Positions 4,491 to 58,024 of a stretch of 64,000 nt of DNA are shown piece after piece. A model generated the notes under the pieces. It searched no databases. It was not told where the DNA came from and was given only the letters and a program-made list of their open reading frames with translations. The DNA is from Dastarcus helophoroides. Its lineage: Eukaryota; Arthropoda; Insecta; Coleoptera; Bothrideridae. The translations under genes were made by a program, and so were the position numbers. Each line of letters opens with the position of its first letter. Position 1 is the first letter of the stretch. Where the stretch lies: NCBI GenBank assembly GCA_028583605.1, contig CM053327.1, forward strand, positions 34,466,126 to 34,530,125. The letters run 5' to 3'.

Positions 4491-4860
4491 GTTGATGTAA
4501 GTACAGTCAAACTTGGGTACCTGGGTAAACTAGGTTTGGGTGAGCTAGAACTGAATAAGCGAAACTCTAAATCTCGCTTATCCAATTCTAGCTCTTTTAG
4601 TTCGATCTAATAAAATCGAAACAGTCTTTGGTTTCCAAACTTTGATAAATGTTCAAACTTGTTCATCTGTGCATTAGAATTCTTGTCTTCTGGGACCTTC
4701 CTAGAGATCAATCACTTTGCTAGGCGTTTGTGTGTCAACTGGTAGTTCGATTACCTATGATGCACTATATATGCTTAGAGGGCTGCATTAATGTAGACTA
4801 GGTTACATTCTATATGCATGAAGCTCTATGAGTGAATTTAAATGCCAAATACCAGAATTA
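4491..4860 (+). mobile_element. Degenerate copy of the 47 kb hammerhead family
   Basis: The segment shares with the 47 kb units the GATCTAATAA...ATCGAAAC, TTTGGTTTCCAAAC, CTTGTCTTCTGGGA and CTACCTATGAT-like stretches in the same order. The CTGACGA box is lost (TTAGTTC in its place) and stem III is shortened (GAAACAGTC), so no working ribozyme is expected. Confidence 0.65.
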
Positions 4861-5224: not shown

Positions 5225-8200
5225 ATTCCTACTTAATTTTGAAAATTTCCACTTTCTTCAAAATTTTTACTTATTAGATATATTTGCTCAATTTCGGCTT
5301 TTTTCCAAAACTTCAATTTTTCAATTCGTAGTTTTTTGAGATAATAAGCCTTGTATATACGAATATATACAAGTTTATTACGATGCAATTGAAATCTAAT
5401 TTCATTAGAATCTAATGAAAACTAGACTGCAATTGCAAAGTTCACGTAGATGAAGCAAAGCTTGTATCACGGGTTGCATCGTAGTTTTTTGAAAAATTCT
5501 AGTATTTTTAAAATTTTTCCATTTAAAAAACTTTGACTTTTTCCAAAACTTTCGATTTTTTTAAAACTGTTTGACACAAAATTTAGGCTCTAAAAATGTT
5601 GTTTTTCGTAAATTCTTAAGACCTTTGACTTTTTCCAAAACTCTCGATTTTTTAAAATGTTTGACACAAAATTTAGGCTCTAAAAATGTTGTTTTTCGTA
5701 AATTCGATTGTTAAATTTTTTTTTTAAACTTCCACCTATTTTTTTTAATTTCCACCTTTTGATAATTTCTAACTTGGTTCAAAATTTTGACTTTCTGAAG
5801 GCTCAACTCTTTGATAAATTTAACGCTTATTTTGAAAATTTTGACATTTCTGAATATTTGATTTTTTTCTAATTTCGACTTGTTGCATTTTTTTCAATCT
5901 GTATTCAGAATTTCCACTTTTTATCCAGGTTTTGAGCCTTTAACTTCGATCTTTTTTTTAAACAATTCTTTTTGAAAGCTTGGACTTTTTCAAAGTTTTC
6001 TTCGAAATTCGAAATCGAAAATCTTCGAATTTGTGTAAATTCGCCTGCTTAAAAAATTCGCCTTTTCCAGAAAATTTCTAATTTTTTAAAAAATCCAAGG
6101 TATTACCTATTTAAAAAATCATCTTTTGCAAATATGTAATACCTTGGATTTTTTGAAAAATCATATTTTTCAAAATTTCGACTTTTTTGAAATCTTCGAT
6201 CTTTCTTTTAAAATTTCCACATATTTAAAAACTTCGACATTTTATTATCAAAATTTCGATTTTCCTCGAAGTTTTGACTTTTTAAAATTTCGACTATTTT
6301 TGAAAATTCTGATTTTTTTTCAAAATTTTAACTTTTTGTCGAATCTTTGAATTTTTTGTAAATTCGACTGTTTAAAAAGTTCGCATTTTCTAAAAAACAT
6401 CTAATTCTTTAAAGAATCTGATGTATGACTTTTATTTGAGAAACTATTTTCTTCACAATTTCGACTTTTTTGAAATTTTTGATCTTTCTTTCAACATTTC
6501 CGCATATTTCAAAATTTCGATTTTCCTTGAAGTTTTGACTTCTTTCACAATTTTGACCGTTTTTTAATATTTCGATTATTTTTGAAAATCCTGAACTTTT
6601 TTTCAAATTTTGACCTTTTATCGAATCTTCGAATTTTTGCAAATTCGACTACTTGAAAAATTCGCCTTTTGCAGCAAATTTCTAATTCTTTAAAAAATCT
6701 GATGTATGACTTTTATTTGAAAAATTATTTTCTTCAAAATTTCGACTTGTTTGAAATTTTCGATCTTTCTTTCAACATTTCCATATATTTCAAAATTTCG
6801 ACATTTTATCAAAATTTCGACATTTTATCAAAATTTCGACATTTTATCAAAATTTCGATTTTCCTCAAACTTTTCACTTCTTTCACAACTTTGACCGTTT
6901 TTTTAAATTTCGATTAGTTTTGAAAATCCTCAACTTTTTTTCAAAATTTTCACTTTTTCTGGAATCTTCGAATTTTTGTAAATTCGACTGTTTGAACAAT
7001 TCGCCTTTTCTAGCAAATTTCTAATTTTTAAAAAAAATCCAAGGTAAAAATCATATTTTTCAAAAATTTGACTTTTTTGAAATCTTCGATCTTTCTTTTA
7101 AAATTTCCATATATTTAAAAACTTCGACATTTTATTATCAAAATTTCGATTTTTCTAGAAGTTTTGACTTTTTTCACAATCTCGACCATTTTTAAAATTT
7201 CGACTATTTTTGAAAATTCTGATCTTTTTTCAAGATTTTAACTTTTTGTCGAATCTCTGAATTTTTGTAAATTCGACTGTGTAAAAAGTTTGTCTTTTGT
7301 AGAAAATTTTGACTTTTATTTAAAAAATTATTTTCTTCAAAATTTCTACTTTTTTGATCTATTTGAAAATTTCGACATTTTATCAAAATTTCGATTTTCC
7401 TCGAAGTTTTGACTTCTTTCATAATCGTAACCAGTTTTTAAAATTTCGATTATTTTTGAAAATCCTCAAATCCTCAATTTTTCTCAAAATTTTGACTTTT
7501 TTTCGAATCTTCGAATTTTTTCAAATTCGACTGTTTAAAAAGTTCACCTTTTCTGAAAAATGTTTAACCCTTTAAAGAATCTGATGTATGACTTTTATTT
7601 GAAAAACTATTTTCTTCAAAATTTCGACTTTTTTGAAATTTTCGATTTTCCTTTCAATATTTCCACAAAAAATTTCGACATTTTATTATCAGATTTTCGA
7701 TTTTCCTCGAAGTTTTGACTTCTTTTATAATCTCGACTATTTTTTAAAATTTCGACTACTTTTGAAAATCTTTGAACTTTTTTTCAAAATTTTCACTTTT
7801 TCTCTAATCTTAGAATTTTTGCAAATTCGACTATTTGAAAAATTCACTGTTTCTAGCAAATTTCTAATTCTTTAAAAAATCTAACATAGGACTTATTTAA
7901 AAAATTATTTTTTTCAAAATTTGGACCTTTTTGAAATTTTCAATTTTTCTTTTAAAATGTTCACATATTTGAAAATTTCGAGATTTTATTATCAAAATTC
8001 GATTGTCCTCGAAGTCGACCATTTTTTAAAATTTTAACTTTTTTTGAAAATCCTGAACTTTTTTTCAAAAGTTTGACTTTTTTTGGAATCTTCAAATTGT
8101 TGCAAATTCGACTGTTTGAAAAATTTGCCTTTTCCAGAAAATGTCTAATCCTTTAAAGAATCTGATGTATGACTTTTATTGGAGAAACTATTTTCCTCAA

Positions 8201-22400: not shown

Positions 22401-22518
22401 TTTAGTGGTTCATCACTATTTCAATTTAACTGTTTAATTACAGAACATTTAATTGGTCATTTGTCAAAACTAGATGAAAGTAAAGTCACGCCGAGGACGT
22501 TTGTATCTATGGATGTTG

Positions 22519-22663
22519 CGATGCAACCCGTGATACAAGCTTTGCCTCATCTACGTGAACTTTGCAATTGCAGTCTAATTTTCATTAGATTCTAATGAAA
22601 TAAGATTTCAATTGCATCGTAATGAACTTGTATATATTCGTATATACAAGGCTTATTATCTCA
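22519..22663 (+). mobile_element. 145-bp fold-back element, copy 2 (nested)
   Basis: This is the reverse complement of 5337-5481 with few differences and both palindromes kept. It lies inside the hammerhead-bearing insert, without an obvious separate target duplication. It may be a nested insertion, or a part of that element that also moved alone. Confidence 0.6.
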
Positions 22664-22804
22664 GCAGAGAGTAATGCTTCAATTAGCATGTAGCAAAAAT
22701 GTTTGCGTAATAAACAGTTAAAAGTCAGTTACAAGTCACCCAATGGAGGTTTGCTCTCTTGGATACTTATACGACTGACTAACGGCTTTAAATTGGAAGT
22801 GTAT

Positions 22805-22867
22805 ACAACCACCGTACCATGCTGACGAGGCCAAGGAAGGACGAAACTAGTCTATGGTTGCGGTTGT
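22805..22867 (+). ncRNA. Hammerhead ribozyme motif, type I
   Basis: CTGACGA (22822-22828), stem II GGCC-AAGGAA-GGAC with one G-A mismatch, GAAA (22843-22846), minimal stem III in the palindrome ACTAGT, GUC cleavage after 22852. Stem I is ACCATG with TATGGT, an internal loop, then ACAACC with GGTTGT. The self-complementary stem III region fits the dimeric hammerheads reported from animal elements. Confidence 0.85.
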
Positions 22868-25694
22868 ACATATTTTCAATTTAAAGCACGTTTAACTGTT
22901 TAATTACAGAACATTTAATTGGTCATTTGTCAAAACTATTTCAATTATTTGATCACGAAAAATTCTCGAAAATTCATAAGGGTGTAGTTATTTTCTCATG
23001 AACTCTTCCCTACAATTCAAAAATGTTTTCTTGGAGGATCCTGATCAAAATAATTTGGAGCTAAAACTTTGAACATTTAATACCTCATCAGTAATCAATT
23101 TGTTTTGCCTCGATACATTATGTTATGTTAAAAAGTTGGGTATTTGGAAGTGCACCTGTCCATTGTTTTCTCATGAAATCTCTAAAATTCGAAAATGTCC
23201 TCATACAGGTTGCCGATCAAAATAGTTTTAATCTAAAACATTAAGCATTTCTTAGTTCATTAGCATTTTAATTATTTGGTCACAAAAATTTACAAATGTG
23301 CTCTTGGAGGTCCGAAGTCAAAATAATAATATGTTAAAATGTTAGATATTTGGCAGTTCATCAGTATTGCAGTTATTTTTTCATGAAATCTTTTCTAAAA
23401 GTCGCAAATGTTCTCTTAGAGAATCCTGATGAAAATAATTTTTAGCTAAAACGTTGAGCATTTAGTTGTTCATCACCATTTCAATTATTTCATTACGAAA
23501 AATGTTCCAAAATTCAAAAGTGTGCAGTTATTTTCCCATGAAATATTTCCCACAATTCAAAAATGTTCTCTTGGAGGATCCTGATCAAAATAATTTGGAG
23601 CTAAAAGTTTGAACATCTAATAACTCATCAGCAATAAACTTGTTTTGCCTCGATATATTATGTTATGTCAAAAAGTTGGGTATTTGGAAGTGCACCTGTC
23701 CATTGTTTTCCCATGAAATCTCTAAAATTCGACAATATCCTCATACAGGTTGCCGATCAAAATAATTTTAAACTAAAACATTGAGCATTTATTAGTTCAT
23801 CGGAATTTTAATTATTTAGTCACAAAAACTTCTCTAAAATTTACAAACGTTCTCTTGGAGGTCCAAAGGAAAAATAATAATATGTTAAAAGTTAGATATT
23901 TGATAGTTCATCAGTGTTGCAGTTATTTTTCCATGAAATCTTCTCTAACAGACGCAAATGTTCTCTTAGAGAATCCTGATGGAAACAATTTTCAGCTAAA
24001 TGTTGAGCATTTAGTAGTTCATCACTATTTCAATTATTGGATCACGAAAAAATTTCTAAAATTCATCAGTTTTTAGTTATTTTTCCATGAAATCTTCCCT
24101 ACAATTCGAAAATGTTCTCTTGGAGGATCCTGATCAAAATAATTTGGAGCTAAAACTTTGGACATTTGGTAGCTCATCAGTAATCAACTCGTTTTGCCTC
24201 GATACTTTATGTTATATTAAAAAGTTGGGTATTTGGAAGTGCACCTGTGAATTGTTTTCCCATAAAATCTCTAAAATTCAAAAATGTCCTTATACAGGTT
24301 GCCGATCAAAGTAGTTTTGATCTAAGACATTGAACATTTCTTAGTTCAATAGCATTTTAATTATTTGGTCACAAAAAATTTTGTAAAATTCACAAATGTG
24401 CTCTTGGAGGTCCAAAGTCTAAATAATAATTTGTTAAAAAGTTTGATATTTGGTAGTTAATCAGTATTGTAGTTATTTTTCCAAGAAATTTTCTCTAAAA
24501 GACGCAAATGTTCTTTTAGAGAATCCTGATAAAAATAATTTTCAGCTAAAACGTTGAACATTTATTAGTTCGTCACTATTTCAACTATTTGATCACGAAA
24601 AGTTCTCTAACTTCATAAGTATGCGCTTGGAGATCTACAGGCAAAATAAAATTGTGCTAAAAAGTTGGGTATTGTGGTGGTTCATCAGTATTCTAGTTCC
24701 TTTTCCATGAAATCTTTCCTACTACGGAGTGATTTAAATTCAAAATTTCAAAAGGATCATCAAAATAACCACGTCACAATTCTAAACTTGAAGTGTAAAA
24801 TTAAAAATACAACAAAAAATAAATAATGAAAGTGGAATTTTGAGAAAAAGATGAAAACTTTGATACTGAAAAAAAATTCGTAAAAGAAGTGAATAAGAGT
24901 TGACAGACGTTTCAGGAAAAAGGCTGAGATTGACAGTTTAAATTTAAAACTTCCAAAAAATGTCGACGTAAAGCCGATGCTCTAACAGAAAAATTTTCTA
25001 TGTAAATCTAAAATTTTTAGAAAAAAGACCAAATTTTTAATTAGGAATCGAAATTTCTAATAAAAGTTTAATTTCCAAATAGAAGTTTCAAAGAAAACGC
25101 AGTAATTGAAGATGTGAACTTGGAATTAAATATGCGAAAATTTGAAATTATAAAAAAATTAAAAAACCGAGATAGATCGAACGAAAGCTGACGCTTCCAA
25201 ATTTGGAATCGAAATTTCAGAATAGTTTTAGGAAATAAGAGGCCTCGATAAGTCTCTTCAACAAGGGCCTATTGGTTCGTAGCTACCCACTGTTCATTTC
25301 TCTATTAGATATCAAGATTAATATCGAATTTTTCTGAAAAACGTCGATTTTATAATCAAAATTTTGGGGAAAAAACAGAATTTTAAATTTAAACTGAAGA
25401 TTGCTTAAAGTCGATTGGATGAAATTAATTTAAAAAAAATCTGTTTAAACTACCAATTTTGAGAAAGAAGCTTAAATTTGGAAACTTAATTCGAGATTTA
25501 ACTGAAAATTTCGATTTTAATGCTGAAATTACAAAAACAATTAAAGCTTTTAAATTGAAAAAGAAAAAATTCCATAAAACACTTGAAATTTATAACACAT
25601 ATAAACGAATTTTTGAGTTTGAAATCTAACCATGGATTTTGAGGAAAAAAGCCAAAATTTCGAAAAAAAAGGATCGAAATTTTGAAGTCAAAAA

Positions 25695-26166: not shown

Positions 26167-26258
26167 CTCTGAAGATGATAGCTTAATTATCGAAACGCAT
26201 TAGAATAACTTTGTTGTATTTTTTAATCTTTCTTGATTTCAGGGGATAAGATTTTTAT
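26167..26258 (+). mobile_element. Fold-back MITE M1, right half only
   Basis: It begins CTCTGAAGATGATAGC and ends TTTCAGGGGATAAGATTTTTA, matching the right arm of the family. The left arm is missing. Confidence 0.6.
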
Positions 26259-26959: not shown

Positions 26960-27335
26960 TTATAAATTGGCTTATATGCAACCTGGACTACAGTTCTGCA
27001 GCCCCCTAGGCTTGTATAGAAAATCATAGGTAGTTGAATTATCAGCAATTGAAACACAAACACCCAGCGAAACGGTTGCTCTCTAGGAAGTTCCCAGAAG
27101 ACAAGGGTTCTAATGCACAGAGCAATCGGCTTGAACATTTATTAGATTAGAGGGTTGGAAACCAAAGACCGGTATCGATCTTGTTAGGTCTTTGGTTTCC
27201 AAAGTTTCAATCCGATAAATTTTCAAGCCTACCTAAGACCGGTTCTGATCTTGTTAGGTCTTTGTTTTCCAAACTTCGAATGTAATAAATGTTCAAGCCT
27301 ATTGGTCTGTGCATTAAATTGGGTTATGTTACTTC
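26960..27335 (-). mobile_element. Degenerate inverted and direct copies of the hammerhead family
   Basis: The - strand matches the 47 kb unit from GCATTAGAA-CTTGTCTTCTGGGA through GTTGCTCTC. It then meets a direct remnant ending AATAAATGTTCAAGCCTATTGG near 27305. Around the lost ribozyme is a 14-bp inverted repeat, GGAAACCAAAGACC (27157-27170) and its complement (27187-27200), separated by GGTATCGATCTTGTTA. The CTGACGA box is missing from both remnants. Confidence 0.6.
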
Positions 27336-36927: not shown

Positions 36928-37206
36928 AAACTATGCCTACAACTCTCAAGGAATAATCTCAGGAAACTTATAGGGACTTGGACAGGTCACTGTCGATTAA
37001 ACAAACACCTCAGAATGGGAATTATAAACGACTCGTGTTGCAGAGGGTGTTTAGAAGAAGATGAGAGTGTCGAACACGTGATGTGTCACTGCCCGGCACT
37101 AGCATCAATCAGGGGATCCACGCTGAGGGACTTCTGGCTTAGTGTGGCCAGTTTGAGAGAGGTGCATCCAAGAGATGTTTTTCAGTTTCTCAATAAGGTT
37201 GGGTGA
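36928..37206 (+). pseudogene. Non-LTR retrotransposon (LINE) ORF2 C-terminal fragment
   Basis: One open frame, closed upstream by TAA at 36925, reads LSRNNLRKLIGTWTGHCRL, then NKHLRMGI. A Cys/His cluster follows (CCRGCLEEDESVEHVMCHC) and the frame ends ...FLNKVG before TGA. This is the RNase H end and zinc-knuckle typical of Jockey/R1-like LINEs. Everything upstream is missing, so it is a 5'-truncated copy; the 3' tail probably runs to about 37320. Confidence 0.85.
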
Positions 37207-43012: not shown

Positions 43013-44238
43013 CGAGGGGGTGGTCTGAAAAGTTTCCGATTGACATTTTTGCTTTAACTTTTTCTTATTTTTCTACATAATCTCCTTATCAGTCTGCACA
43101 CTTTTCCCAGTGATGATGCCATCACTTTAACCCATCCAAATAGTACTCGGCGTTTTTCTCTGCAAAGTAATTATTCGCGAAGGTAATTGCCTCCTTATTT
43201 GACGAAAATCTCTGTCCTCTGAACGCAATTTTTATGAGGGAACCAAAAGAAGTCGGTTGGGACTAGGTCTAGTGAATAAGGAGGATGTCAAGCACTTCAA
43301 ACCATAATTCGTGGATTTTCTCTATGGCAATTACGGAGATGGGTGGTGAAACAGGATTTTCTTTTTCTGCAAATGTGGCCGTTTCTTCGCAATTGTTGCC
43401 TTCAGCTTGTCAAATAAAAGGGTATGCCCCTGTAGTGGTTTTTCCTGTTTGAAGATAATCGATTAAGATAACTTCGTGACTATCCTAAAAAACTGTCGTC
43501 CATCACTTTCCCATCCGAAAAAATAGGTTTAACTTTTTTTGGACCCGATTCCCTTTCGCAGTCCAGTGTTTTGACTGTATTTTTGTTTCGGGCGTATATT
43601 GGTGTATCCAAATTTCATCTGCAGTGATTAATGGGCGCCAAAATTCTTATTTATTGTTCCAACGAAGCGTTGGAAATGTTCACTCGAATACGTTTTTGAT
43701 TTAAGGTGAGCAAACGCGCCACCCAACGCACGGACAGCTTTCTCATGCCAAAATCTTGTGACAAACACATTGGACATATTCAGATCTTTTTTTATCTCTC
43801 TCACTTTATTTCGGTCGTTAAGCATCATTTGGTGAACTTTAGCGATGTTATCGTCAGTGGTTACAATTTTTGGACGTCCCTAACGTTCATCGTCTCTCAA
43901 GCTGGTACGACCACGTTTAAATTCAGCTGCCCAAAATTTTCCTGTGGTAAATTGTGGTGCAGAGTCCCCACACACAGAGTCCAACTCATCTTTGATTTGC
44001 GTAGGCTTATTGCCTTTCAAAAACACAGCTCGATACTCTATTTTTTCCATTTTTACAAAAACACTGACATCGACTCACTCAGTTGTCAAATAACAACTGC
44101 GTCTCCAAAATAGCTGAAATTTTAATGAATACCATTTTAATGAATACCCGCCAAAGGATGCACAATTACATTCCCTAACCTGTATTGACGGGGGCTGCCA
44201 TTTTCACGTTAAGGTTGGAAACTTTTGGGACATCCACG
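43013..44238 (-). mobile_element. Decayed mariner transposon
   Basis: The ends are imperfect inverted repeats (CGAGGGGGTGGTCTGAAAAG... and, reverse complemented, CGTGGATGTCCCAAAAG...), each bordered by TA (43011-43012 and 44239-44240). At 1226 bp it is close to a full-length mariner. The transposase on the - strand is broken (separate entry). Confidence 0.9.
43065..44050 (-). pseudogene. Mariner transposase pseudogene
   Basis: The - strand reads from ATG at 44050 through a helix-turn-helix N-terminus (GDSAPQFTTGKFWAAEFKRG, then DDER and GRPK). Frameshifts and stops follow. A fragment with the first catalytic aspartate (ADEIWIHQY, near 43600-43620) is in another frame. The HQDNAP segment that should carry the second aspartate is deleted (LFHHPSP). 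A remnant of the third (PPYSLDLVPTDFF) remains. No active transposase can be made from this copy. Confidence 0.85.
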
Positions 44239-44559: not shown

Positions 44560-47160
44560 CGATAAATAAAAAATGTCAAGCGAAAATATATTAAACAGCC
44601 TCAGGACGTTTTCCCGAAGGGCACTTTGCTTCGGTTTTCGTGTTTTTTTTATTCGAAATTTCGGATCCTTCCCCCAAAATGTGTCCTTTTACAAATTCGG
44701 CTTCAACTTTTTTCTCAAAATATGTCTTTCTTTGAGAAATTTATACTTCTTTTTAGAAATTATAATCTTTTCCCCAAAATGTCGACTTAGCTTCTAATTT
44801 TTTTTGGGTCAATATTTGTTGATTTTTCTCAAATTCCGCTCTTTTCCAAATTTTGACTTCTTTGACTCATTCAAAATTCGCCCTTTATCGATATTTTGAA
44901 AAATTGAAAAATTCCTGAACATTATCGATATTTTGAAAATTCAATTTTTTTTGTAAACATTCGAGGAATCTTATTTTGTCTAAATATCAACTTTTTTATC
45001 GAAATTTCAAAAAAAGTCGGGTTATCCGATAAATAAAAAATGTCGAGCGAAAATATATTAAACAGTCTCAGGATATTTTCCCAAAATTTTACATTTTTCC
45101 TCGGTTTTCGTGTTTTTTTTATTCGAAATTTCAACTCTTTTTTCCAAAATTCGTCCTTTTACAAATTCGGATTTATTAAAATTCAACTTTTTTCCCAGAA
45201 TATGACTTCCTCTGAGAAATGTATACTTTTTCTTAAAAATTATATTCTTTTTCCTAAAATATCGACTTTGTTTTTAATTTACCTTTTCTTGTCAAAATTT
45301 CTTAACGTTTTCTAAAAATTTCGATTTTTTTTAAGTCCCCCCATTTTCAAAATTCGCCTTTTATCGATATTTCGAAAATTTGAATATTTCTTCTGAACAT
45401 TATCGATATTTCGAAAATTCGAATATTTTTTCTGAACATTATCGATATTTCGATTTTTTTTTGTACATTGTCATATTTCGAAGAGTCAATTTTTTCTGAA
45501 TATTCAAGAAATTTATTTTTTTTTCTAAACTTCAACTCCTTTTATCAAAATTTCTCAAACTTTTTTTCAAAAATTTCATTTGTTTTCATTAAAATACTTT
45601 TATTTTTCAAAAACCAATATTTTTCCAAATTCAGCTTGTTTGGAAAATTTCGATTTTTTTTTATTTCAACATTTTAGAAATTTGGGACTTCCCATTCCCA
45701 TTTCATTTGGACTTGTATCATAAAATTCATCCTTTTATTTGAGCATTCGTCTTTTTCTTGATATTTCAATTTTTTCCCGCCACAATTCGAGGTTTCGGCT
45801 CAATTTCCAAAATTTGACTTTGTTCTCAATGTTTAACATTTTTTGGGAAATTTTGACTCTTTTCCTAATATTGGGATGTGTTTAAGAATCTTCGACCTCC
45901 TATAAATTGCTTTTTTTTTATTTCCCAAATTTTCTCAACCTCTGCTACCTTAGAAAAAATCGAATTTTGTGGATGAAACTTTGTGGTTGTTTTTTAAAAT
46001 TTGTCTGTTTCTCGTCTTTATTAAAAATTTTCACATTTCAATCTTCGAAATCCTCGAAACTTTGGGTTTCATGTTGACCATTTGTTGAAAAATTATGATT
46101 TTTTTTAAATTATGAATTTTTTGAAAACTTTGATTTCTTTCAATATGTTTTGGTGGAACGGACTGGTCCTTGGTTATCTTCAAAAATTCAGATACAAATC
46201 TTGTCCCCTGAAACCAAGAAAGATTAAAAAACACAACAGAGGTTGCTCTAACGCGTTTCAATAGCCTAGCTATCATCTTCAGACATATCTCTCTGAATAT
46301 GATAGCTTGGCTTGGAGATATATCTCTGAAGATGATGACTTGGTTATGGAAATGCATTAAAGTAACCTCTGTTGTGTTTTTTAATCTTTCTTGGTTTCAG
46401 GAGACAAAATTTGTATTTCAATTCTTCCAATATATCAACCCCTTGAAAGTTTTCTTGAAAATATCAACATTTTTTGAAAATTACAACGTACAAGGATCAT
46501 TCTCAAAATTTTGACATTTTCAAATTTCCACCTCTTCCAAAATTCCGGTTTTAATTTTTTCTAATCCTATATTTTCAGCATATTTTAGTATAGATATTTG
46601 TAAGCAAGAAATAAAGGAAGAAGCGATTTTGAAAATTTCAATCATGTCTCAGTTTTTTTAGTTTCGACTTTTTTAATGCATATATTTACGAATTTTGCTT
46701 CCAAAATGTTATTTCGGCATTCGCTTTTCCCAAAAACTAGTTTTATTTTCAGAAATTTCGATTTCATTTTTAAAATTTGTCCTTTTTCCTCAAAGTTTGA
46801 CTATCTTCTGACTATAGATTTTTCTTGATTTTGAATCTTTTTCTGTTTTAATGATATTTTAACAAATTTTCGAGCGTTTTACAAATCCTTTTTTTTTCAT
46901 TTTCCCAGTTTTCTCAAAATTCTGCTAAAATAGAAAAATCTTTGAATAGAACTTTCGGCTTGTTTTTCAAAAATTTTTTTTTCTTTATATCAGTTTTCAA
47001 AATTTTTATTTCAGCATTCGCTTTTTTCTAAAAATTTCGACTTTTTTCCTCAAAACTATTCTTTTTTTTTTAAATTTCGATTTTTTTTTAAATTTGCGTT
47101 TTTTCCCAAATTTTGACTATCTTTGGGTTTCAGATTTTTTTTCAATTTTCTGAAATGTTT
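44560..47160 (+). repeat. TTTCGA array with a 466-bp tandem duplication
   Basis: Polarity is as at 5-9 and 33-35 kb. The block starting ATGTCAAGCGAAAATATATTAAACAG at 44573 is repeated at 45039 (466 bp). A shorter GAACATTATCGATATTTCGA unit repeats around 44910-45450. A MITE lies at 46.15-46.42 kb. Confidence 0.8.
46152..46416. mobile_element. Fold-back MITE (family M1), best-preserved large copy
   Basis: The left end reads GGTGGAACGGACTGGTCC, then TACAAATCTTGTCCCCTGAAACC and AGATTAAAAAACACAACAGAGG. The right half is its reverse complement, ending in GGAGACAAAATTTGTA. The centre holds GCTATCATCTTCAG and its inverse. Arms are about 100 bp, so the RNA or single strand would fold end to end. Other copies are at 25.7, 26.2, 35.0, 38.5, 50.4, 58.0, 58.6 and 59.7 kb. 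Confidence 0.75.
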
Positions 47161-47248
47161 TAACTAGTTGATGTATAAATAATGAATACAATTTAACATT
47201 TTTCACCAGAATTCTAATGCACAGACCAATAGGTTTGAACATTTATTA

Positions 47249-47315
47249 GATTCGAAGTTTGGAAACCAAATACCGGTTTCGATCTTATTAGATCTCGTCA
47301 GTTTGGTCAGTTTGG
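47249..47315 (-). ncRNA. Hammerhead ribozyme motif, inverted copy
   Basis: Read on the - strand: CTGACGA (47295-47301), stem II GATCT-AATA-AGATC, GAAAC, then the CCGGTA stem III/cleavage region. Cleavage is predicted between 47271 and 47270. CCAAA before the core pairs with TTTGG after the cleavage site (stem I). All core nucleotides are intact. Confidence 0.8.
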
Positions 47316-47396
47316 ACCAATAGGTTGTAGTACTAAGAGTCACTCGCTTGACGTCTGTGAATGTTTTAGTACTTACTTGTCGGAACATTTGTTAGT

Positions 47397-47470
47397 ATTC
47401 GAGTTGGATATGTCAAACTGACGAGATCTAATAAGATCGAAACCGGTATTTGGTTTCCAATCTTCGAATC
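47397..47470 (+). ncRNA. Hammerhead ribozyme motif, direct copy A
   Basis: CTGACGA (47418-47424), stem II GATCT-AATA-AGATC (47425-47438), GAAA (47439-47442), and a minimal stem III around the palindrome ACCGGT. The predicted GUA cleavage site falls after 47448. Stem I is formed by the segment before the core and TTTGG...TTCCAA...TTCGAAT after it, with an internal loop. The core is intact; one stem I pair is a U-G wobble. Confidence 0.85.
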
Positions 47471-47776
47471 TAATAAATGTTCAAACTTATTGGTCTGTGC
47501 ATTAGAATCCTTGTCTTCTGGGAAATTGTTCGTAGAGAGCAACCGCTTCGCGAGCTGGCAGTGTTTCAGCTGTTTGGTAGTTCAGTTACCTATGATTCAC
47601 TATACACGCCGCATGGAGGACTGCATGAATTTGTTGTCTAGGTTGCATTCTACTTGCATACGACATTGTTGGCGATGGCCATAGTTTCTCTATGGACCAA
47701 TAGGTGGTAGTACTAAGAGTCACACGCTTGATGTCTATGAATTTTTTAGTACTTACTTGTCGGAACATTTGTTAGC

Positions 47777-47850
47777 ATTCGAGTTGGATGTTCCAAACTG
47801 ACGAGATCTAATAAGATCGAAACCGGTCTTTGGTTTCCAAACTTCGAATC
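47777..47850 (+). ncRNA. Hammerhead ribozyme motif, direct copy B (best copy)
   Basis: CTGACGA (47798-47804), 5-bp stem II with AATA loop, GAAA (47819-47822), stem III palindrome ACCGGT, GUC cleavage after 47828. Stem I pairs CCAAA with TTTGG, then TTGGA with TCCAA, then ATTCGA with TCGAAT across small internal loops. Every conserved core position is present. Cleavage at A and B would release a 380-nt RNA. Confidence 0.9.
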
Positions 47851-48147
47851 TAATAAATGTTCAAACCTATTGGTCTGTGCATTATAGAATCCTTGTCTTC
47901 TGCGAACTCTCCTAGAGAGCAACCGCTTCGCTAGGTGGCAGTGTTTCAACTGTTGGTAGTTACCTATGATTCACTAAACACGCCTGGAGAGCTGCATGAA
48001 TTTGTTGTCTAGGTTGCATTCTACTTGCATACGACATTGTTGGCGATGGTCATAGTTTCTCTATGGACCAATAGGTGGTAGTACTAAGAGTCACACGCTT
48101 GATGTCTATGAATTTTTTAGTACTTACTTGTCGGAACATTTGCTAGT

Positions 48148-48221
48148 ATTCGAGTTGGATATACCAAACTGACGAGATCTAATAAGATCTAAACCGGTAT
48201 TTGGTTTCCAAACTTCGAATC
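48148..48221 (+). ncRNA. Hammerhead ribozyme motif, direct copy C (core-mutated)
   Basis: CTGACGA (48169-48175) and stem II are kept. The GAAA that should follow reads TAAA, so the conserved G12, the proposed general base, is U (48190). This copy is predicted to be inactive or nearly so. The rest of the fold, including ACCGGT and stem I CCAAA/TTTGG, matches copies A and B. Confidence 0.8.
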
Positions 48222-48424
48222 TAATAAATGTTCAAACCTATTGGTCTGTGCATTAGAATCCTTGTCTTCTAGGAAATTGTTCCTAGAGAGCAACCGCTTC
48301 GCTAGATGGCAGTGTTTCAACTGTTTGGTAGTTCAGCTACCTATGATTCACTATACACGCCGCATGGAGGGCTGCCTGAATTTGTAGTCTAGGTTGCATT
48401 CTACTTGCATTTTTCACCAGAATT

Positions 48425-52181: not shown

Positions 52182-53903
52182 ATGCCGAGAACAATACCCA
52201 TCATCAACATGGAGTACGGCGAGCTAAAGGAGGTGGTGTGGACGAAGCTTCAAGAGCCTCGAACGCAACGAAAACTCATCCTAGTCATCGTCTCTATCGC
52301 CCTCCTCCTGGACAACATGTTATACATGGTGATAGTGCCCATCATCCCAGATTATTTACGTTACATCGGCGCCTACACCGACGAGCCTATGGTGCCGGGA
52401 AACGTGACACTTCCACCGGGTACTCCCTACAAACACGACCACCATGGACAGGACTCGGCTACCGGCATCCTCTTCGCATCCAAAGCCATCGTACAGCTGA
52501 TGGTGAATCCGTTTTCCGGAGCGCTGATCGATCGCATCGGATACGACATCCCCATGATGATAGGCCTTTGCATCATGTTCCTGTCGACGGCGGTGTTCGC
52601 GTGCGGCCGAAGTTACGGTCTCCTGTTCTTCGCTCGAAGTCTCCAGGGCGTCGGTTCGGCTTTCGCAGATACGTCAGGGTTGGCGATGATCGCCGATCGC
52701 TTCACGGAGGAAAACGAGCGATCGAAAGCCTTAGGGATCGCGCTCGCCTTCATCAGCTTCGGTTGTTTGGTGGCACCTCCGTTCGGGGGCGCCCTCTACC
52801 AATTTGCTGGAAAAGAAATGCCTTTCTTAATTTTAGCTTTTATATCGCTTTTGGATGGTTTTATGTTGCTTCTTGTTATGAAACCGATAAAGCAACAAAT
52901 AATGGAGTCGCAGATGGCGAAACCGCCGTCGGTTCCGATATGGAGGTTGTTTATGGATCCTTATATCGCGGTTTGCTCGGGGGCGTTGATGATGTCGAAT
53001 GTGGCGTTGGCGTTCTTGGAACCGACTATATCGCTTTGGATGGAGGACAATTTAACAACGGACAATTGGAAGATTGGTATGATTTGGTTGCCTGCGTTCG
53101 TTCCTCATGTAATTGGCGTCGTGTTAACGGTAAAGATGGCGAAACAATATCCCCATTATCAGTGGTTGATGGCGGCAGGAGGTTTAGCCTTGGAAGGACT
53201 CTGTTGCTTTATAATTCCTTTCTCTCCTTCCTGCACGGTGCTGATGATACCGATATGCGGAATTTGCTTCGGCGTAGCCCTCATAGATACCGCCCTATTG
53301 CCCACTCTCGGATACTTGGTGGATATAAGATACGTTTCCATATACGGAAGTATATACGCCATCGCGGATATCTCCTATTCTGTGGCTTACGCCATAGGTC
53401 CCATAATAGCCGGAGAAGTAGTAGAAATGATAGGATTCACGGCTTTAAACATAGGAATCGCATTTTCAAATCTTTTATACGCCCCAGTTCTGATATACCT
53501 TAAACACATTTACGACTTCAAGCCGTTCCAAAATGAGGCAAATATTTTAATGGCTGATCCACCGAAAAAAGAATACCAAACCTACTCGATGCAAGAACAG
53601 AAAACTGTAACGAACGGCGTTCAGAATCATTTAGAATATAAAGAGCAGACGGAAACGTCGTTTAATAACACCGATGAGCAATATCAGGATCCGAATTATC
53701 AACAAGGTGGTTATCAGAATTATCAAACAAATTATCAGGATGGTTATCAGAGTCAACAATACCAGGACAACAGTTATCGTCAACAGGAGGCGCCGGCAAG
53801 GCCGCCTAGACCCGCTGGTAGGGTCTTGCCTCAACAGCCGGAGCCTGCAAATCCGTTTAGACCCCAAGCTACCGGAGGCAATCCATTTAGGCAAGGTTTT
53901 TAA
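52182..53903 (+). CDS. VAChT: Vesicular acetylcholine transporter (VAChT), complete single-exon ORF
   Basis: This 573-residue member of the major facilitator superfamily exchanges vesicular protons for cytosolic acetylcholine at the synaptic vesicle membrane. The start lies in GCCACCATG, and its product is close in length to the fly protein. About 12 membrane segments are visible (roughly 33-56, 94-113, 123-142, 147-167, 183-206, 214-234, 260-285, 299-318, 328-346, 352-376, 387-410, 418-440). Family hallmarks include LLLDNMLYMVIVPIIP with Asp44 in TM1, Lys101 in TM2, the NPFSGALIDRIG loop 2-3 motif, Asp163 in TM4, the VAPPFGG motif in TM5, Asp369 (ALIDTALLP) in TM10 and Asp396 (AIADISYSV) in TM11. 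N-glycosylation sequons occur at Asn74 and Asn290, both in predicted luminal loops. The 130-residue cytosolic tail has an acidic dileucine-like ENxxLM region, a Tyr/Gln-rich stretch (500-535), an SH3-type PxxPxR at 538-543 and two NPF motifs. The ORF has no intron and sits 14 kb downstream of a ChAT exon on the same strand, as expected for a nested cholinergic locus. Confidence 0.97.
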   Translation: MPRTIPIINMEYGELKEVVWTKLQEPRTQRKLILVIVSIALLLDNMLYMVIVPIIPDYLRYIGAYTDEPMVPGNVTLPPGTPYKHDHHGQDSATGILFASKAIVQLMVNPFSGALIDRIGYDIPMMIGLCIMFLSTAVFACGRSYGLLFFARSLQGVGSAFADTSGLAMIADRFTEENERSKALGIALAFISFGCLVAPPFGGALYQFAGKEMPFLILAFISLLDGFMLLLVMKPIKQQIMESQMAKPPSVPIWRLFMDPYIAVCSGALMMSNVALAFLEPTISLWMEDNLTTDNWKIGMIWLPAFVPHVIGVVLTVKMAKQYPHYQWLMAAGGLALEGLCCFIIPFSPSCTVLMIPICGICFGVALIDTALLPTLGYLVDIRYVSIYGSIYAIADISYSVAYAIGPIIAGEVVEMIGFTALNIGIAFSNLLYAPVLIYLKHIYDFKPFQNEANILMADPPKKEYQTYSMQEQKTVTNGVQNHLEYKEQTETSFNNTDEQYQDPNYQQGGYQNYQTNYQDGYQSQQYQDNSYRQQEAPARPPRPAGRVLPQQPEPANPFRPQATGGNPFRQGF

Positions 53904-54293: not shown

Positions 54294-55159
54294 ACCTTAT
54301 TTGATGCATTTCTGCGGCCAATGATTTTGGACGCAGTCAGCAATCAATATAATCAAGATAAGAGGAAAATCGGTGAAGAAAATTTTCAAAAATGTCAAAA
54401 ATATTAACCGCAAAATTGTCCCTTATTCGTAAAAATATAATTTTGCTAAATGTGCCTTGAATAGTGGCTGATTACATTTAATTCGAAAAAGTTATTAGGG
54501 AAAATAAAATAGAGGCTGAATTTATGGAATACTTTGCTTCTTTATTATTCATGTGTACCAAGAGTCCCCTAATGCAAAGATGAATTAATATTTTTTGCAA
54601 AGTATTTCTTTAAACAATTATTAAGAAGTTTTGAAATTTTGAGTTTAACTTTTATGAGTGAAAGATGTCTCGAATTATCTATTTTTCTGTCATACAATTT
54701 TTATAGAAGACTTTTTAGGGTTTATCCAAAATTTCGATCATTTTCTCTAAAGTTGGACTTTATTCTGGAAAATGGGACATTTAATTACAAAATATTTCTC
54801 TAAAAAAATTTGTACGAAATTTTTTTTTAATTTTCGTTTGTTTGTTTGAAGAAAGAATCAAATTGAATTTAAAGTATGAATGCATTGATTCCAGTAAAAG
54901 AACTTAAAATTTTCAATGTTAAAGCGTAATGGCAAAATTTCGAGAATTCTAATTCTCGAAATTCTCCTGAGAAAAAAATTTGCGGCATTTGTAAAATAAA
55001 GTCTTTCAAAACTTTAAATGTAAATTCGAACTTTCGTTAATTTGTCTCGAATCAAAAAATCGAATTTATAAAAATTGAGGTTCAAAAAATTCCGAATATT
55101 CGAGTTTAATGTCGCAAAGACTAAAGTCGAACATTGCTGATTTAAGCAAATAAAATGCA
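54294..55159. other. No gene seen downstream of VAChT
   Basis: AT-rich. I looked for the next ChAT exon (expected after AG as G-N-TGG-AAR-GA) and saw none here. Confidence 0.45.
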
Positions 55160-55375
55160 ACTTAGACTATAGTATGCAGCCCTCTGAGCTTGTATTATAG
55201 GTAGCTGAACTACCAACAGTTGAAACACAAACGCCTAGCAAAGCGGTTGCTCTCGAGGAAGATCCCAGAAGACAAGATTCCAATGCACAAACTAATCGGT
55301 TTAAACATTTATCAGATTTCGAGTTTGGAAACCAAACAAACTTTGAATAACATAAACCTATTGGTCCGTGCATTA
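55160..55375 (-). mobile_element. Truncated copy of the hammerhead family
   Basis: The - strand carries the family's GCATTGGAAT-CTTGTCTTCTGGGA, AGAGCAACCGCTT and GGTAGTTCAGCTACCTA segments. The copy breaks off inside the ribozyme stem I (TTTGGAAACCAAAC), and the core is absent. Confidence 0.6.
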
Positions 55376-58024
55376 GAATATTACAGATTTACATTAAAAT
55401 GTCAATTTTAAAGTCGAAATGTCGTTGGAAATTTCTAAAATAGGATTTAGATTCTATATTATACAATCGTATGTTCGATATTCGTTTCAAAATTTTTCCA
55501 ATTTTGAATTTAAGATCGAGATATGTGGTCTAAAGTAGAAAGACTTTTGAATTCTTAAGAAGAGTTTTGGGCGTGAAGTGGAAATTTCGAAATAAAAGAC
55601 GAAACTTTTCGCTTAAAAACGAGTTTTGAAGTCGAATTTTGTAAATGAAATTCCACGTTTCAAAAGTAAAGTCGAAATTTTGAGCAAAATTCAGAATTTC
55701 GAGTTTAAAGCTGAAATATGAAGATTAAAGTAAAAACAAGTTCCTGATTTTCAAAAAGCATTCAAAAAATGTCGATTTTGAGGTAAAAATGTTGAGTCTA
55801 AAGTAGAAAGATTAAAGACAACATTTTAAATCATTTACTTATGAATAAATCAAAATTTGATTGCTAAAATCCAAACACTTTGAAAGTCATTTGAATCAAA
55901 AGTCGAAATTTTGAGTTTAAAACGAAAATTTTGAATTCAAGTGGATTTAAGATCGAGATATGTAGTCTAGAGTAGAAACACTTTTGAATTCTTAAAAAAA
56001 AATTGATTTTTAGGCCTGAAGTGGAAATTTCGAAATAAAAGACGAAAGTTTTCGCTTAGAAACGAGTTTTGAAGTCGAATTCTGTAAATAAAATTCCGCG
56101 CTTTAAAAGTAAAATCGTTTTAAGCAAAATTGAGCATTTCGAGTTTAAAGCCGAAATTTGAAGCTTAAAGTAAAAAAAAGTTCGGGAATTTCAAAGAGCA
56201 TTCAAAAAATTTCGATTTTGAGGTAAAAATTTTGAGTCTAAAGTGGAGAGTTTAAAGACAACATTTTAAATTAATAATTGTTTATTTATTAATAAATCAA
56301 AATTTGATCGCTAAAATTCAGTCAATTTGAAATTCATTTGAATTAAAAGTCGAAATTTTGACTTTAAAACGGAAATTTTGAATTCAAATGGACTTAAGAT
56401 CGAGATATGTAGTCTAGAGTAGAAAGACTTTTGAATTCTTAAGAAGAGTTTTGGGCTTGAAGTGGAAATTTTAAAATAAAAGACAAAAGTTTTCGCTTAA
56501 AAACGAGTTTTGAAGTCGAATTTTGTAAATAAAATTCCGCATTTCAAAAATAACGTCGTTTTGAGCAAAATTCATAATTTCGAGTTTAAAGCCGAAATGT
56601 GAGGATTAAAGTAAAAAAAAGTTCGTAAATTTTAAAAATCATTTAAAAAATTTCGATTTTAAGGTAAACATTTTGAGTCTAAAGTAAAAAGATTAAGGAC
56701 AACATTTTTAATTAATAATTATTTATTTATTAATAAATCAAAATTTGATCTCTCAAATCCAAACAATTTGAAAGTCATTCGAATTAAAAATCCAAATTTT
56801 GAGTTTAAAACAGAAATTTTAAATTCAAGCCCCCGAAATTTTTGATTTAAAATCGAATATGCAGAGTAGATCTGTTTTCCAAAAACGAAAGTTTTTCGAA
56901 ATATTTAGTCGAGTTTGAAGTGAAAATTTCAAAATAAAAGACGAAAGTTTTCGTTTAAAAACGAGATTTTAGGTTTGAAGTTTTGGGTTTAAAGAGGAAA
57001 TTTCGAAATTAGAGCGAAAATTTTGAATTTAAACCAGTTTAAAGACGAAATTTTTTTATTTAAAATCAAGTTTTCAGGTTTGAAGTCGAAATGCTTAGAT
57101 TAGTTCCCAAATTTCGATAATAAGAACAATTTAAGAATGAAGTCAGAATTTCAAGTTTAAAGACGAAACGTGGAAATCAAACTGAAAAGCAATTTCGAAT
57201 TTTTGAAAAACTTTTAAAAAATTTCGATATGGAAGTCAAAATATTGAGAACAAAATCCAAAATCTCGTGTTTCAAATCGAAATGTGTGGATCAAAGTATT
57301 CGGATTTTTTTTTAATGCTCAAAAAAATATGCTAACGTCAAAATTTTGAGTTTAAAACCAAAATTTAGTCGCTAAAATTTAAAGAATTTGAGTCATTCGA
57401 GCCAAAAGTCGAAATTTCTGATTTCTGAAATCCTAAAACGAAAGTTTCTCGAAATTTATCTTTCAAAATTCTTTCAAGTTTAAAGAGGAAATTTTGAATT
57501 TGAAGACAAATTTTTTGTTTAAAAGAGAGTTTTTAGGATTAAAGTGGAAATGTTTATATATAAGTTTTCTTATTTCGAGAATAAGAACCTTTTGAGAAGT
57601 CAAAATTTCGAGATAAGAAACGAAACGTGGAAATAAAGCTGAAAAGCATTTTAGAATTTCTAAAAAAGGGTTAAAAAATGTTCTCTATGAAAGTCGAAAT
57701 TTTGAGAACAAAATTCAAAAATATCGTGTTTCAAATTGAAATGTGGAAATCAAAGTCGAAAACATCCAAAATGTTTGAAAAATACTTAAAACATTTTGAT
57801 ACAAACGCTTAAATTCAAACAATTTGAAAGTCATTCGAACCAAAAGTCGAAATTTTGAGTTTAAAACAAAAATTTCGAGTTTCAGTCTCGTAAGTTTTTG
57901 ATTTAAACTCAAATATGTGGAGCAAGTTGAAAGACTTCTGAATTCCTAAAAGGAAAGTTTCTCGAAAATTTAAAATTCTTTCGAGTTTAAAGAGGAAATT
58001 TCGAGATTGAAGACAATTTTTTTT

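What the first reader, a model, noticed from the sequence alone, without database searches (positions are those of the whole stretch)
47198..48424. Tandem hammerhead-ribozyme element with a 16-bp target duplication
Three direct units (380 and 371 bp spacing) plus one inverted unit each contain CTGACGA - hairpin - GAAAC - palindrome - UH with matching stem I. The whole is framed by a perfect 16-bp direct repeat. The non-coding unit size and very short palindromic stem III fit metazoan retrozymes or Penelope-like PLTRs, which can yield circular RNA. Cleavage at copies A and B would release a 380-nt RNA.
Basis: partly seen in the sequence, partly recalled or inferred. Interest (0 to 1): 0.9.

Follow-up and report, generated by a model that had tools for sequence, protein, structure and literature searches.

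The report
Beetle retrozyme with dimeric hammerhead ribozymes
A beetle chromosome carries a small protein-free jumping element made of repeated units that each encode a hammerhead-type self-cutting RNA, and the way it is inserted looks like the work of Penelope-like retrotransposons, which are suspected but not proven to move such elements.

Summary
The element is real. At 47197-48424 three direct units (380, 371 and a partial 347 nt) follow a ~96-nt inverted part-unit, inside a perfect 17-nt direct repeat. Hammerhead cores A, B and inverted D are intact; copy C carries G12->U. No Rfam match reaches gathering, but Hammerhead_HH9 matches all four (best E 2.5e-4 over 64 kb). A strict motif scan finds four sites in the window (A, B, D and one more) and none in 400 shuffles; the fourth lies in an unrelated second element (22427-22934) with a 12-nt duplication and empty sites in the surrounding satellite. 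Stem III is a loopless palindrome, so cleavage should need RNA dimers. The host is a beetle; three relics of the family lie in the window. Best reading: a non-autonomous retrozyme-like element, probably inserted by Penelope-like machinery, because the inverted 5' arm has the same outer end, within 4 nt, at three loci. The 380-nt circle is unproven: copy A is predicted to fold into the inverted arm in read-through RNA. Units A and C share derived changes that B lacks, so the tandem was probably not copied from one circle. The own-genome search did not complete.

The parts
47197..47213 (.). left copy of the framing direct repeat CATTTTTCACCAGAATT (target-site duplication of 11-17 nt; 3 nt at each end also match the unit)
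47211..47306 (-). inverted part-unit (5' arm), 95-99% complementary to the unit stretch around the ribozyme, with an intact hammerhead D
47271..47301 (-). hammerhead core D (CTGACGA to H17), cut predicted after 47271 on the minus strand
47313..47692 (+). direct unit A (380 nt)
47418..47448 (+). hammerhead core A, predicted cut between 47448 and 47449 (GUA)
47449..47828 (+). 380-nt RNA that cuts at A and B would release (predicted, not shown)
47693..48063 (+). direct unit B (371 nt), a different subtype from A and C
47798..47828 (+). hammerhead core B, predicted cut between 47828 and 47829 (GUC)
48064..48410 (+). direct unit C, 347 nt, ends at unit position 338 (unit B numbering)
48169..48199 (+). 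hammerhead core C with G12 changed to U at 48190; predicted inactive (role of G12 recalled)
48408..48424 (.). right copy of the framing direct repeat
4604..4819 (+). degenerate relic of the same family, no 5' arm, ends at the same 3' point (unit 338)
26976..27316 (-). degenerate relic with inverted 5' part-units; ends at unit 327; weak candidate 8-nt duplication CCAATTTA
55143..55379 (-). degenerate relic with an inverted 5' arm; its direct unit starts exactly at the base after the predicted cut site; ends at unit 339
22427..22934 (+). second, unrelated hammerhead element (508 nt: one 466-nt unit plus a repeat of its first 42 nt) inside a satellite array; no inverted arm
22415..22426 (.). left 12-nt target duplication ACTATTTCAATT of the second element
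22935..22946 (.). right 12-nt target duplication of the second element
22822..22852 (+). hammerhead core of the second element, palindrome CTAG, predicted cut after 22852; one of four stem II pairs is a mismatch

Best explanation
47197-48424 is one insertion of a non-autonomous, protein-free retrotransposon of a beetle: a retrozyme-like multimer of ~371-380-nt units, each with a minimal hammerhead whose loopless palindromic stem III (ACCGGU) makes it work as a dimer between neighbouring units or between two RNAs. Shown: anatomy, ribozyme motif, target duplication, an inverted 5' arm with one common outer end at three loci, a nearly common 3' end, other copies, and a second unrelated element with known empty sites. 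Inferred: transcripts self-cleave; a GIY-YIG Penelope-like reverse transcriptase acting in trans opens AT-rich DNA and starts copying at fixed internal sites of the RNA from both cut strands, one giving the direct units and the other the inverted arm, and the two cDNAs are joined at microhomology.
For: Rfam HH9 at A, B, C and D; strict scan 4 sites against 0 in 400 shuffles. Of 13 pairs compared between the two families, three changed on both sides, one per helix (6 of 500 shuffles reach this; in effect one comparison of two families). Perfect 17-nt framing repeat; second element with a 12-nt duplication and 5 satellite copies aligning over all 160 nt of its empty site, 3 of 5 without a gap and 2 of 5 with one. 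Inverted arms at 47k, 55k and 27k have outer ends within 4 nt of each other. Direct units end at unit position 338 at 47k and 4.6k and at 339 at 55k. At 55k the direct unit begins at the base after the cut site. Folded as circles the units are highly self-paired, z -4.2, -4.9 and -9.8, against -0.6 and 0.7 for two control stretches. Literature match: Penelope copies with an inverted pLTR next to direct pLTRs plus target duplication (PMC3846280, passages); internal reverse-transcription start 85-92 nt past the hammerhead cut (my arithmetic from PMC11167929), against 82 nt for the second element's 3' end.
Against: No Rfam hit reaches gathering. No reverse transcriptase or GIY-YIG endonuclease found in the window: 30 of 73 ORFs of at least 75 aa scanned, only a sub-cut-off zf-RVT piece. 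The 3' end of the main family lies 211 nt (unit C) past the cut, not 85-92; only the arm's outer end (57-60 nt) and the second element (82 nt) are near. The 27k relic ends at unit 327, and the 4.6k relic and the second element have no inverted arm. The duplications (12 and 11-17 nt) tend to be longer than the 8-10 bp in the rotifer passages. In one search two of 65 cells are unpaired, and the count of further pair types is no better than shuffles (423 of 500). Minimum-energy folds do not show the active core. No cleavage, transcript or wider genome evidence was available.
Confidence: 0.72

Rival explanations
1. The element is a remnant of a full Penelope-like element (solo or tandem pLTRs after loss of the ORF), not an independently spreading short unit.
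For: Minimal hammerheads that may act as dimers, tandem pLTRs, an inverted pLTR and target duplications are all described for Penelope-like elements (PMC3846280 and PMC7761336 passages, PMC11167929 main text).
Against: Four insertions of the family in 64 kb with the same unit and no ORF of at least 75 aa with a Pfam hit in any of them; a second ORF-less element; the period is a steady 371-380 nt with nothing between units.
Confidence: 0.17
2. A retrozyme moved by a LINE: ordinary target-primed reverse transcription with twin priming makes the 5' inversion.
For: Twin priming gives the same geometry, and target duplications of 7-20 nt are usual for LINEs (both recalled); LINE-type debris may be in the window (zf-RVT piece 36928-37206, below its cut-off).
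Against: Outer ends of the arm coincide at three loci, whereas LINE twin-priming points scatter (recalled); no long A-rich tail at either element's 3' end (element 2 ends in CAAA).
Confidence: 0.15
3. A tandem satellite repeat without mobility that happens to carry a hammerhead, spread by unequal exchange.
For: A hammerhead satellite exists in cave crickets (PMC2837043, title and abstract start only); this window is full of tandem arrays.
Against: Direct repeats framing both elements, empty sites for the second, inverted arm with a constant outer end.
Confidence: 0.03
4. The hammerhead-like motif is coincidental.
For: All Rfam hits below gathering; one mismatch in stem II of the second element and G12 changed in copy C.
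Against: 0 of 400 shuffles, significant HH9 hits, compensatory differences between two unrelated elements.
Confidence: 0.03

Closest known systems
Metazoan non-LTR retrozymes (Cervera and de la Pena 2020, PMC7229834)
   Same: Non-coding tandem units of 170-400 nt with a type I hammerhead, GC below 50%, target duplications over 4 bp, strongly self-paired predicted circles; insects are named among hosts; axolotl forms need dimers.
   Different: Most invertebrate ones have a helix III that works in the monomer. The passages I read describe no inverted 5' arm for them, and PMC7761336 (passages) says metazoan retrozyme repeats show no motif that reveals the mobilising element.
Penelope-like elements and their pLTR hammerheads (PMC11167929, PMC3846280, PMC7761336)
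   Same: Minimal hammerhead lacking the variable part of helix III, partial tandems, an inverted pLTR next to a direct pLTR, target duplication, AT-rich target.
   Different: No reverse transcriptase or GIY-YIG ORF here; unit of 371-380 nt only; the main family's 3' end lies farther past the cut than in the anole element.
Amphibian (newt, axolotl) satellite hammerheads and the Aedes aegypti repeat hammerhead (PMC7229834 text; PMC3088659 Figure S8 legend)
   Same: Palindromic helix III that pairs between two units; amphibian repeats of about 330-350 nt. The axolotl form (one pair capped by a palindromic tetraloop) may be nearly the same as ACCGGU, depending on how the closing A-U pair is counted.
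   Different: The Aedes helix III is longer (10 bp in the dimer). No inverted 5' arm is described in the parts I read.
Rfam Hammerhead_HH9 (RF02275) and Hammerhead_1 (RF00163)
   Same: Best sub-threshold matches for element 1 (HH9, 32.7 bits) and element 2 (Hammerhead_1, 19.5 bits).
   Different: Both models have loop positions on helix III that are missing here (alignments); scores stay below gathering (52 and 34).

Membership tests
Hammerhead ribozyme (type I) | Conserved core CUGANGA...GAAA...UH with helix I open | tested here: met
   A, B, D and the second element; not met by copy C (G12 changed)
Hammerhead ribozyme (type I) | Rfam gathering score | tested here: not met
   0 matches at gathering; significant below it for element 1
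Hammerhead ribozyme (type I) | Helix III with a loop (canonical form) | tested here: not met
   CCGG and CTAG palindromes without loop; fits the minimal, dimeric form
Hammerhead ribozyme (type I) | Site-specific self-cleavage | not testable with these tools
   no bench data
Metazoan non-LTR retrozyme | Tandem non-coding units of about 150-450 bp with a hammerhead in each | tested here: met
   380/371/347 nt; no Pfam domain in the only ORF of at least 75 aa inside the element; copy C is a changed hammerhead
Metazoan non-LTR retrozyme | GC below 50% and target duplication longer than 4 bp | tested here: met
   GC 0.40 and 0.35; 11-17 and 12 nt
Metazoan non-LTR retrozyme | Classical (not minimal) type I hammerhead with loop-loop contacts | tested here: inconclusive
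   helix III is minimal, but axolotl retrozymes also have a very weak one; loop-loop contacts not tested. Hence 'retrozyme-like'
Metazoan non-LTR retrozyme | Expression as linear and circular RNA | not testable with these tools
Metazoan non-LTR retrozyme | No primer-binding site or polypurine tract | not tested
   no scan made
Penelope-like element | ORF with telomerase-like RT and GIY-YIG endonuclease | tested here: not met
   none in the element; 30 of 73 window ORFs scanned. Hence not filed as a Penelope-like element
Penelope-like element | Direct pLTR-like repeats with an inverted copy at the 5' end and a target duplication | tested here: met
   47k locus; arms also at 55k and 27k; absent at 4.6k and in the second element
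Penelope-like element | 3' end at a fixed internal RNA site downstream of the hammerhead cut | tested here: inconclusive
   unit 338-339 in 3 of 4 loci (27k ends at 327) but 211 nt past the cut at 47k; second element 82 nt

The most novel reading that the evidence does not exclude
This is direct sequence evidence that Penelope-like machinery moves animal retrozymes: protein-free 370-nt ribozyme units carry its integration signature (double-strand primed insertion with a fixed-end inverted 5' arm), and at 47k the template was a mixed multimeric or switched linear RNA, not one RNA circle.
Probability: 0.4. Interest if true: 0.72.

Novelty: new variant of a known kind. Interest (0 to 1): 0.52.

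Why it matters
Which enzyme mobilises animal retrozymes is open: PMC7229834 calls Penelope-like elements a strong candidate, PMC11722881 (passages) proposes that retrozymes are reduced Penelope-like elements, and PMC7761336 says the repeats carry no motif that reveals the helper. An inverted 5' arm with a constant outer end is such a motif and can be counted genome-wide in any beetle assembly. The unit-by-unit differences (A and C against B) and the 55k junction at the cut site also let one ask from DNA alone whether the template is a circle, a cleaved linear monomer or an uncut multimer.

Tried and rejected
First guess that the host is a nematode (my recognition of the ORF and the composition, note): wrong; homologues of the ORF 52182-53903 put it in beetles (corrected). 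DNA-transposon reading: rejected by eye, the two element ends are not inverted repeats of each other. Pol III-driven SINE reading: B-box-like words in the unit but no match to a simple A-box pattern in element 1 (both patterns recalled); not supported. Loose CTGANGA...GAAA matches: 28 in the window, 6.4 expected, largest shuffle 14; of the other 24 none passed the strict scan, which only covers hairpins of 8-24 nt, so a few with shorter or longer ones were not judged by it. Candidate target duplications at 27k (8 nt) and at 55k and 4.6k (6 nt) are weak: 206 of 3966 random flank pairs share 8 nt or more. Minimum-energy folds: B and C form helices I and II but pair part of the core with the palindrome; A, D and the second element fold otherwise; the dimer folds do not show the active form either. 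They neither prove nor exclude activity. Private substitutions A 12, B 10, C 6: no significant difference (p 0.37). The exact ribozyme pattern is absent from bacterial/archaeal contigs and from IMG/VR, as expected for a beetle element.

Full report
WHAT IS THERE. At 47313-48410 three direct units of 380, 371 and 347 nt (the last cut at unit position 338, unit B numbering) lie head to tail. Before them lies an inverted part-unit, 47211-47306, 95-99% complementary to the unit stretch around the ribozyme. The whole is framed by a perfect 17-nt direct repeat, 47197-47213 and 48408-48424. Its first 3 nt on the right also match the unit end, and its last 3 nt on the left also match the arm, so the true duplication is 11-17 nt. 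In 5151 flank pairs of the same spacing from non-array parts of the window, 8 shared 14 nt or more and the longest shared word was 15. In 2984 pairs of 61-nt stretches from the whole window, repeats included, 11 shared 17 or more.

RIBOZYMES. Rfam at gathering level finds nothing. With relaxed thresholds, Hammerhead_HH9 (RF02275) matches B, C, A and the inverted copy D with 32.7, 31.4, 28.6 and 24.3 bits (gathering 52), E 5.5e-6 to 2.6e-3 in 1401 bases and 2.5e-4 to 0.12 in the whole window. A strict scan (CTGANGA, stem II, GAAA, palindromic tetramer, UH, stem I) gives four sites: A, B, D and 22822; none in 400 dinucleotide shuffles, and 6 in 400 if any tetramer is allowed. I wrote the scan after seeing the motif. 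Copy C fails because G12 is U (48190). Stem III is ACCGGU in element 1 and ACUAGU in element 2: self-complementary and without a loop, so a single molecule cannot close it. From recalled hammerhead geometry, in a dimer the core of one unit cuts the site of the other; hence B could cut A or C, but C should not cut B.

A SECOND, UNRELATED ELEMENT. The fourth site lies in a 508-nt insertion, 22427-22934, in a satellite array. Removing it with one 12-nt copy (ACTATTTCAATT, 22415-22426 and 22935-22946) leaves a 160-nt empty site that aligns over its whole length with five satellite copies of the window at 83-92.5% identity, three without a gap and two with one. The insertion is one 466-nt unit plus a repeat of its first 42 nt. 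A 145-nt stretch of it (22519-22663) is 97% identical to 5337-5481, so the true unit may be about 320 nt. Rfam Hammerhead_1 gives 19.5 bits (gathering 34), E 0.066 in 601 bases. Against element 1, three of 13 compared pairs changed on both sides, one in each helix (6 of 500 shuffles reach this); two of 65 cells are unpaired, one of them a stem II pair of element 2; the measure 'further pair types' is no better than shuffles, 423 of 500. This is in effect one comparison between two families.

HOST AND OTHER COPIES. The ORF 52182-53903 is a vesicular acetylcholine transporter; the best named hits are beetles (Aethina tumida 85%, Anoplophora glabripennis 84%). Three diverged relics of the family lie at 4604-4819 (+), 26976-27316 (-) and 55143-55379 (-). 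Inverted 5' arms occur at three of four loci (47k, 27k, 55k) and their outer ends fall within 4 nt of each other. The direct parts end at unit position 338 at 47k and 4.6k, 339 at 55k and 327 at 27k (ends of local alignments). At 55k the direct part begins exactly at the base after the predicted cut, as expected if a cleaved RNA was copied to its end; this is one locus, noticed after the fact.

HOW IT MOST LIKELY WORKS. Inference: read-through transcription gives multimeric RNA; paired ribozymes of neighbouring units cut it; a helper reverse transcriptase copies it into new sites. Typical Penelope copies have direct pLTRs next to an inverted pLTR, with target duplications of 8-10 bp in the passages seen, and one insertion there had none (PMC3846280, find passages). 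The anole Penelope-like protein cuts and extends both strands, prefers AT-rich ATT sites, and starts copying 111-118 nt into the ORF while its ribozyme cuts 26 nt into it (PMC11167929, main text read), that is 85-92 nt past the cut. Here the distances are 82 nt (element 2), 57-60 nt (outer end of the arm, by the coordinates above) and 211 nt (3' end at 47k). So two of three fit roughly and one does not. That paper also reports that ribozyme cleavage is not needed for insertion in vitro and that its ribozyme needs the protein.

LIMITS ON THE CIRCLE IDEA. Cuts at A and B would release 380 nt (47449-47828), and the predicted circles are strongly self-paired (z -4.2 and -4.9; element 2 -9.8; two controls -0.6 and 0.7). 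But RNA that includes the inverted arm is predicted to fold copy A into a long hairpin (-185.8 kcal/mol for 318 nt). Units A and C share two insertions and two substitutions that B and the relics lack, one of the substitutions beside an insertion in an uncertain stretch of the alignment; A and B share one substitution that C and the relics lack. If all three units had been copied from one circle they would differ only by later, private changes. So the template was probably a mixed multimer, or the enzyme switched templates; later gene conversion cannot be excluded. Element 2 runs through its own cut site for more than one lap (508 nt on a 466-nt unit), which needs a circle or an uncut multimer; so the two elements do not point the same way on this question.

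COMPARISON. Metazoan retrozymes are tandem 170-400-nt units with type I hammerheads, insects included (PMC7229834, abstract, results parts 1-2 of 3 and discussion read). [quoted passage not shown] Minimal hammerheads that may act as dimers are described for Penelope-like elements (PMC7761336, passages; the primary papers of 2014 and 2017 are not held). Palindromic helix III dimers were proposed for Aedes aegypti (PMC3088659, Figure S8 legend). PMC11722881 (passages) proposes that retrozymes are reduced Penelope-like elements, and PMC8969392 (passages) notes that they may rely on them. So the link itself is already in print as a proposal; what I did not see is a structural signature for it. In ten searches of the held library no title or abstract start listed describes an inverted 5' arm on a retrozyme or a beetle hammerhead; the lists are capped, the library lacks most subscription papers, and I opened only some of the listed papers. 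Hence: a new variant of a known kind, with the integration pattern of Penelope-like elements on a retrozyme-sized, protein-free unit.

WHAT COULD NOT BE DONE. The search of the beetle's own genome did not complete (14 calls), so copy number, the autonomous helper and the constancy of the ends rest on four loci in 64 kb. There are no RNA data. Of 73 window ORFs of at least 75 aa, 30 were scanned for domains.

Noticed in passing
22427-22934: Second retrozyme-like insertion with hammerhead, 12-nt target duplication and empty sites in the satellite; its unit folds very strongly (z -9.8).
   Followed up: yes
22519-22663 and 5337-5481 (-): 145-nt repeat, 97% identical; the 5-kb copy is flanked by AAAAAACTA on both sides, so it may be a mobile element of its own; no such flank repeat seen at 22.5 kb.
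   Followed up: partly
52182-53903 (+): Single-exon vesicular acetylcholine transporter ORF; element 1 lies about 4 kb upstream with its units in the same direction.
   Followed up: partly
46219-46389: Palindromic repeat that scores on MIR2606 (RF04205, 50.8 bits, gathering 139.7); similar words at 26169 and 35278, perhaps a MITE.
   Followed up: no
36928-37206 (+) and 43628-43879 (-): Possible remnant of a non-LTR retrotransposon (zf-RVT, below its cut-off) and a mariner-like transposase fragment (recognised by eye; no Pfam hit).
   Followed up: no
about 13.5-24.6 kb and 38.85-42 kb: Large tandem arrays with periods of about 112/431 bp and 140 bp.
   Followed up: no
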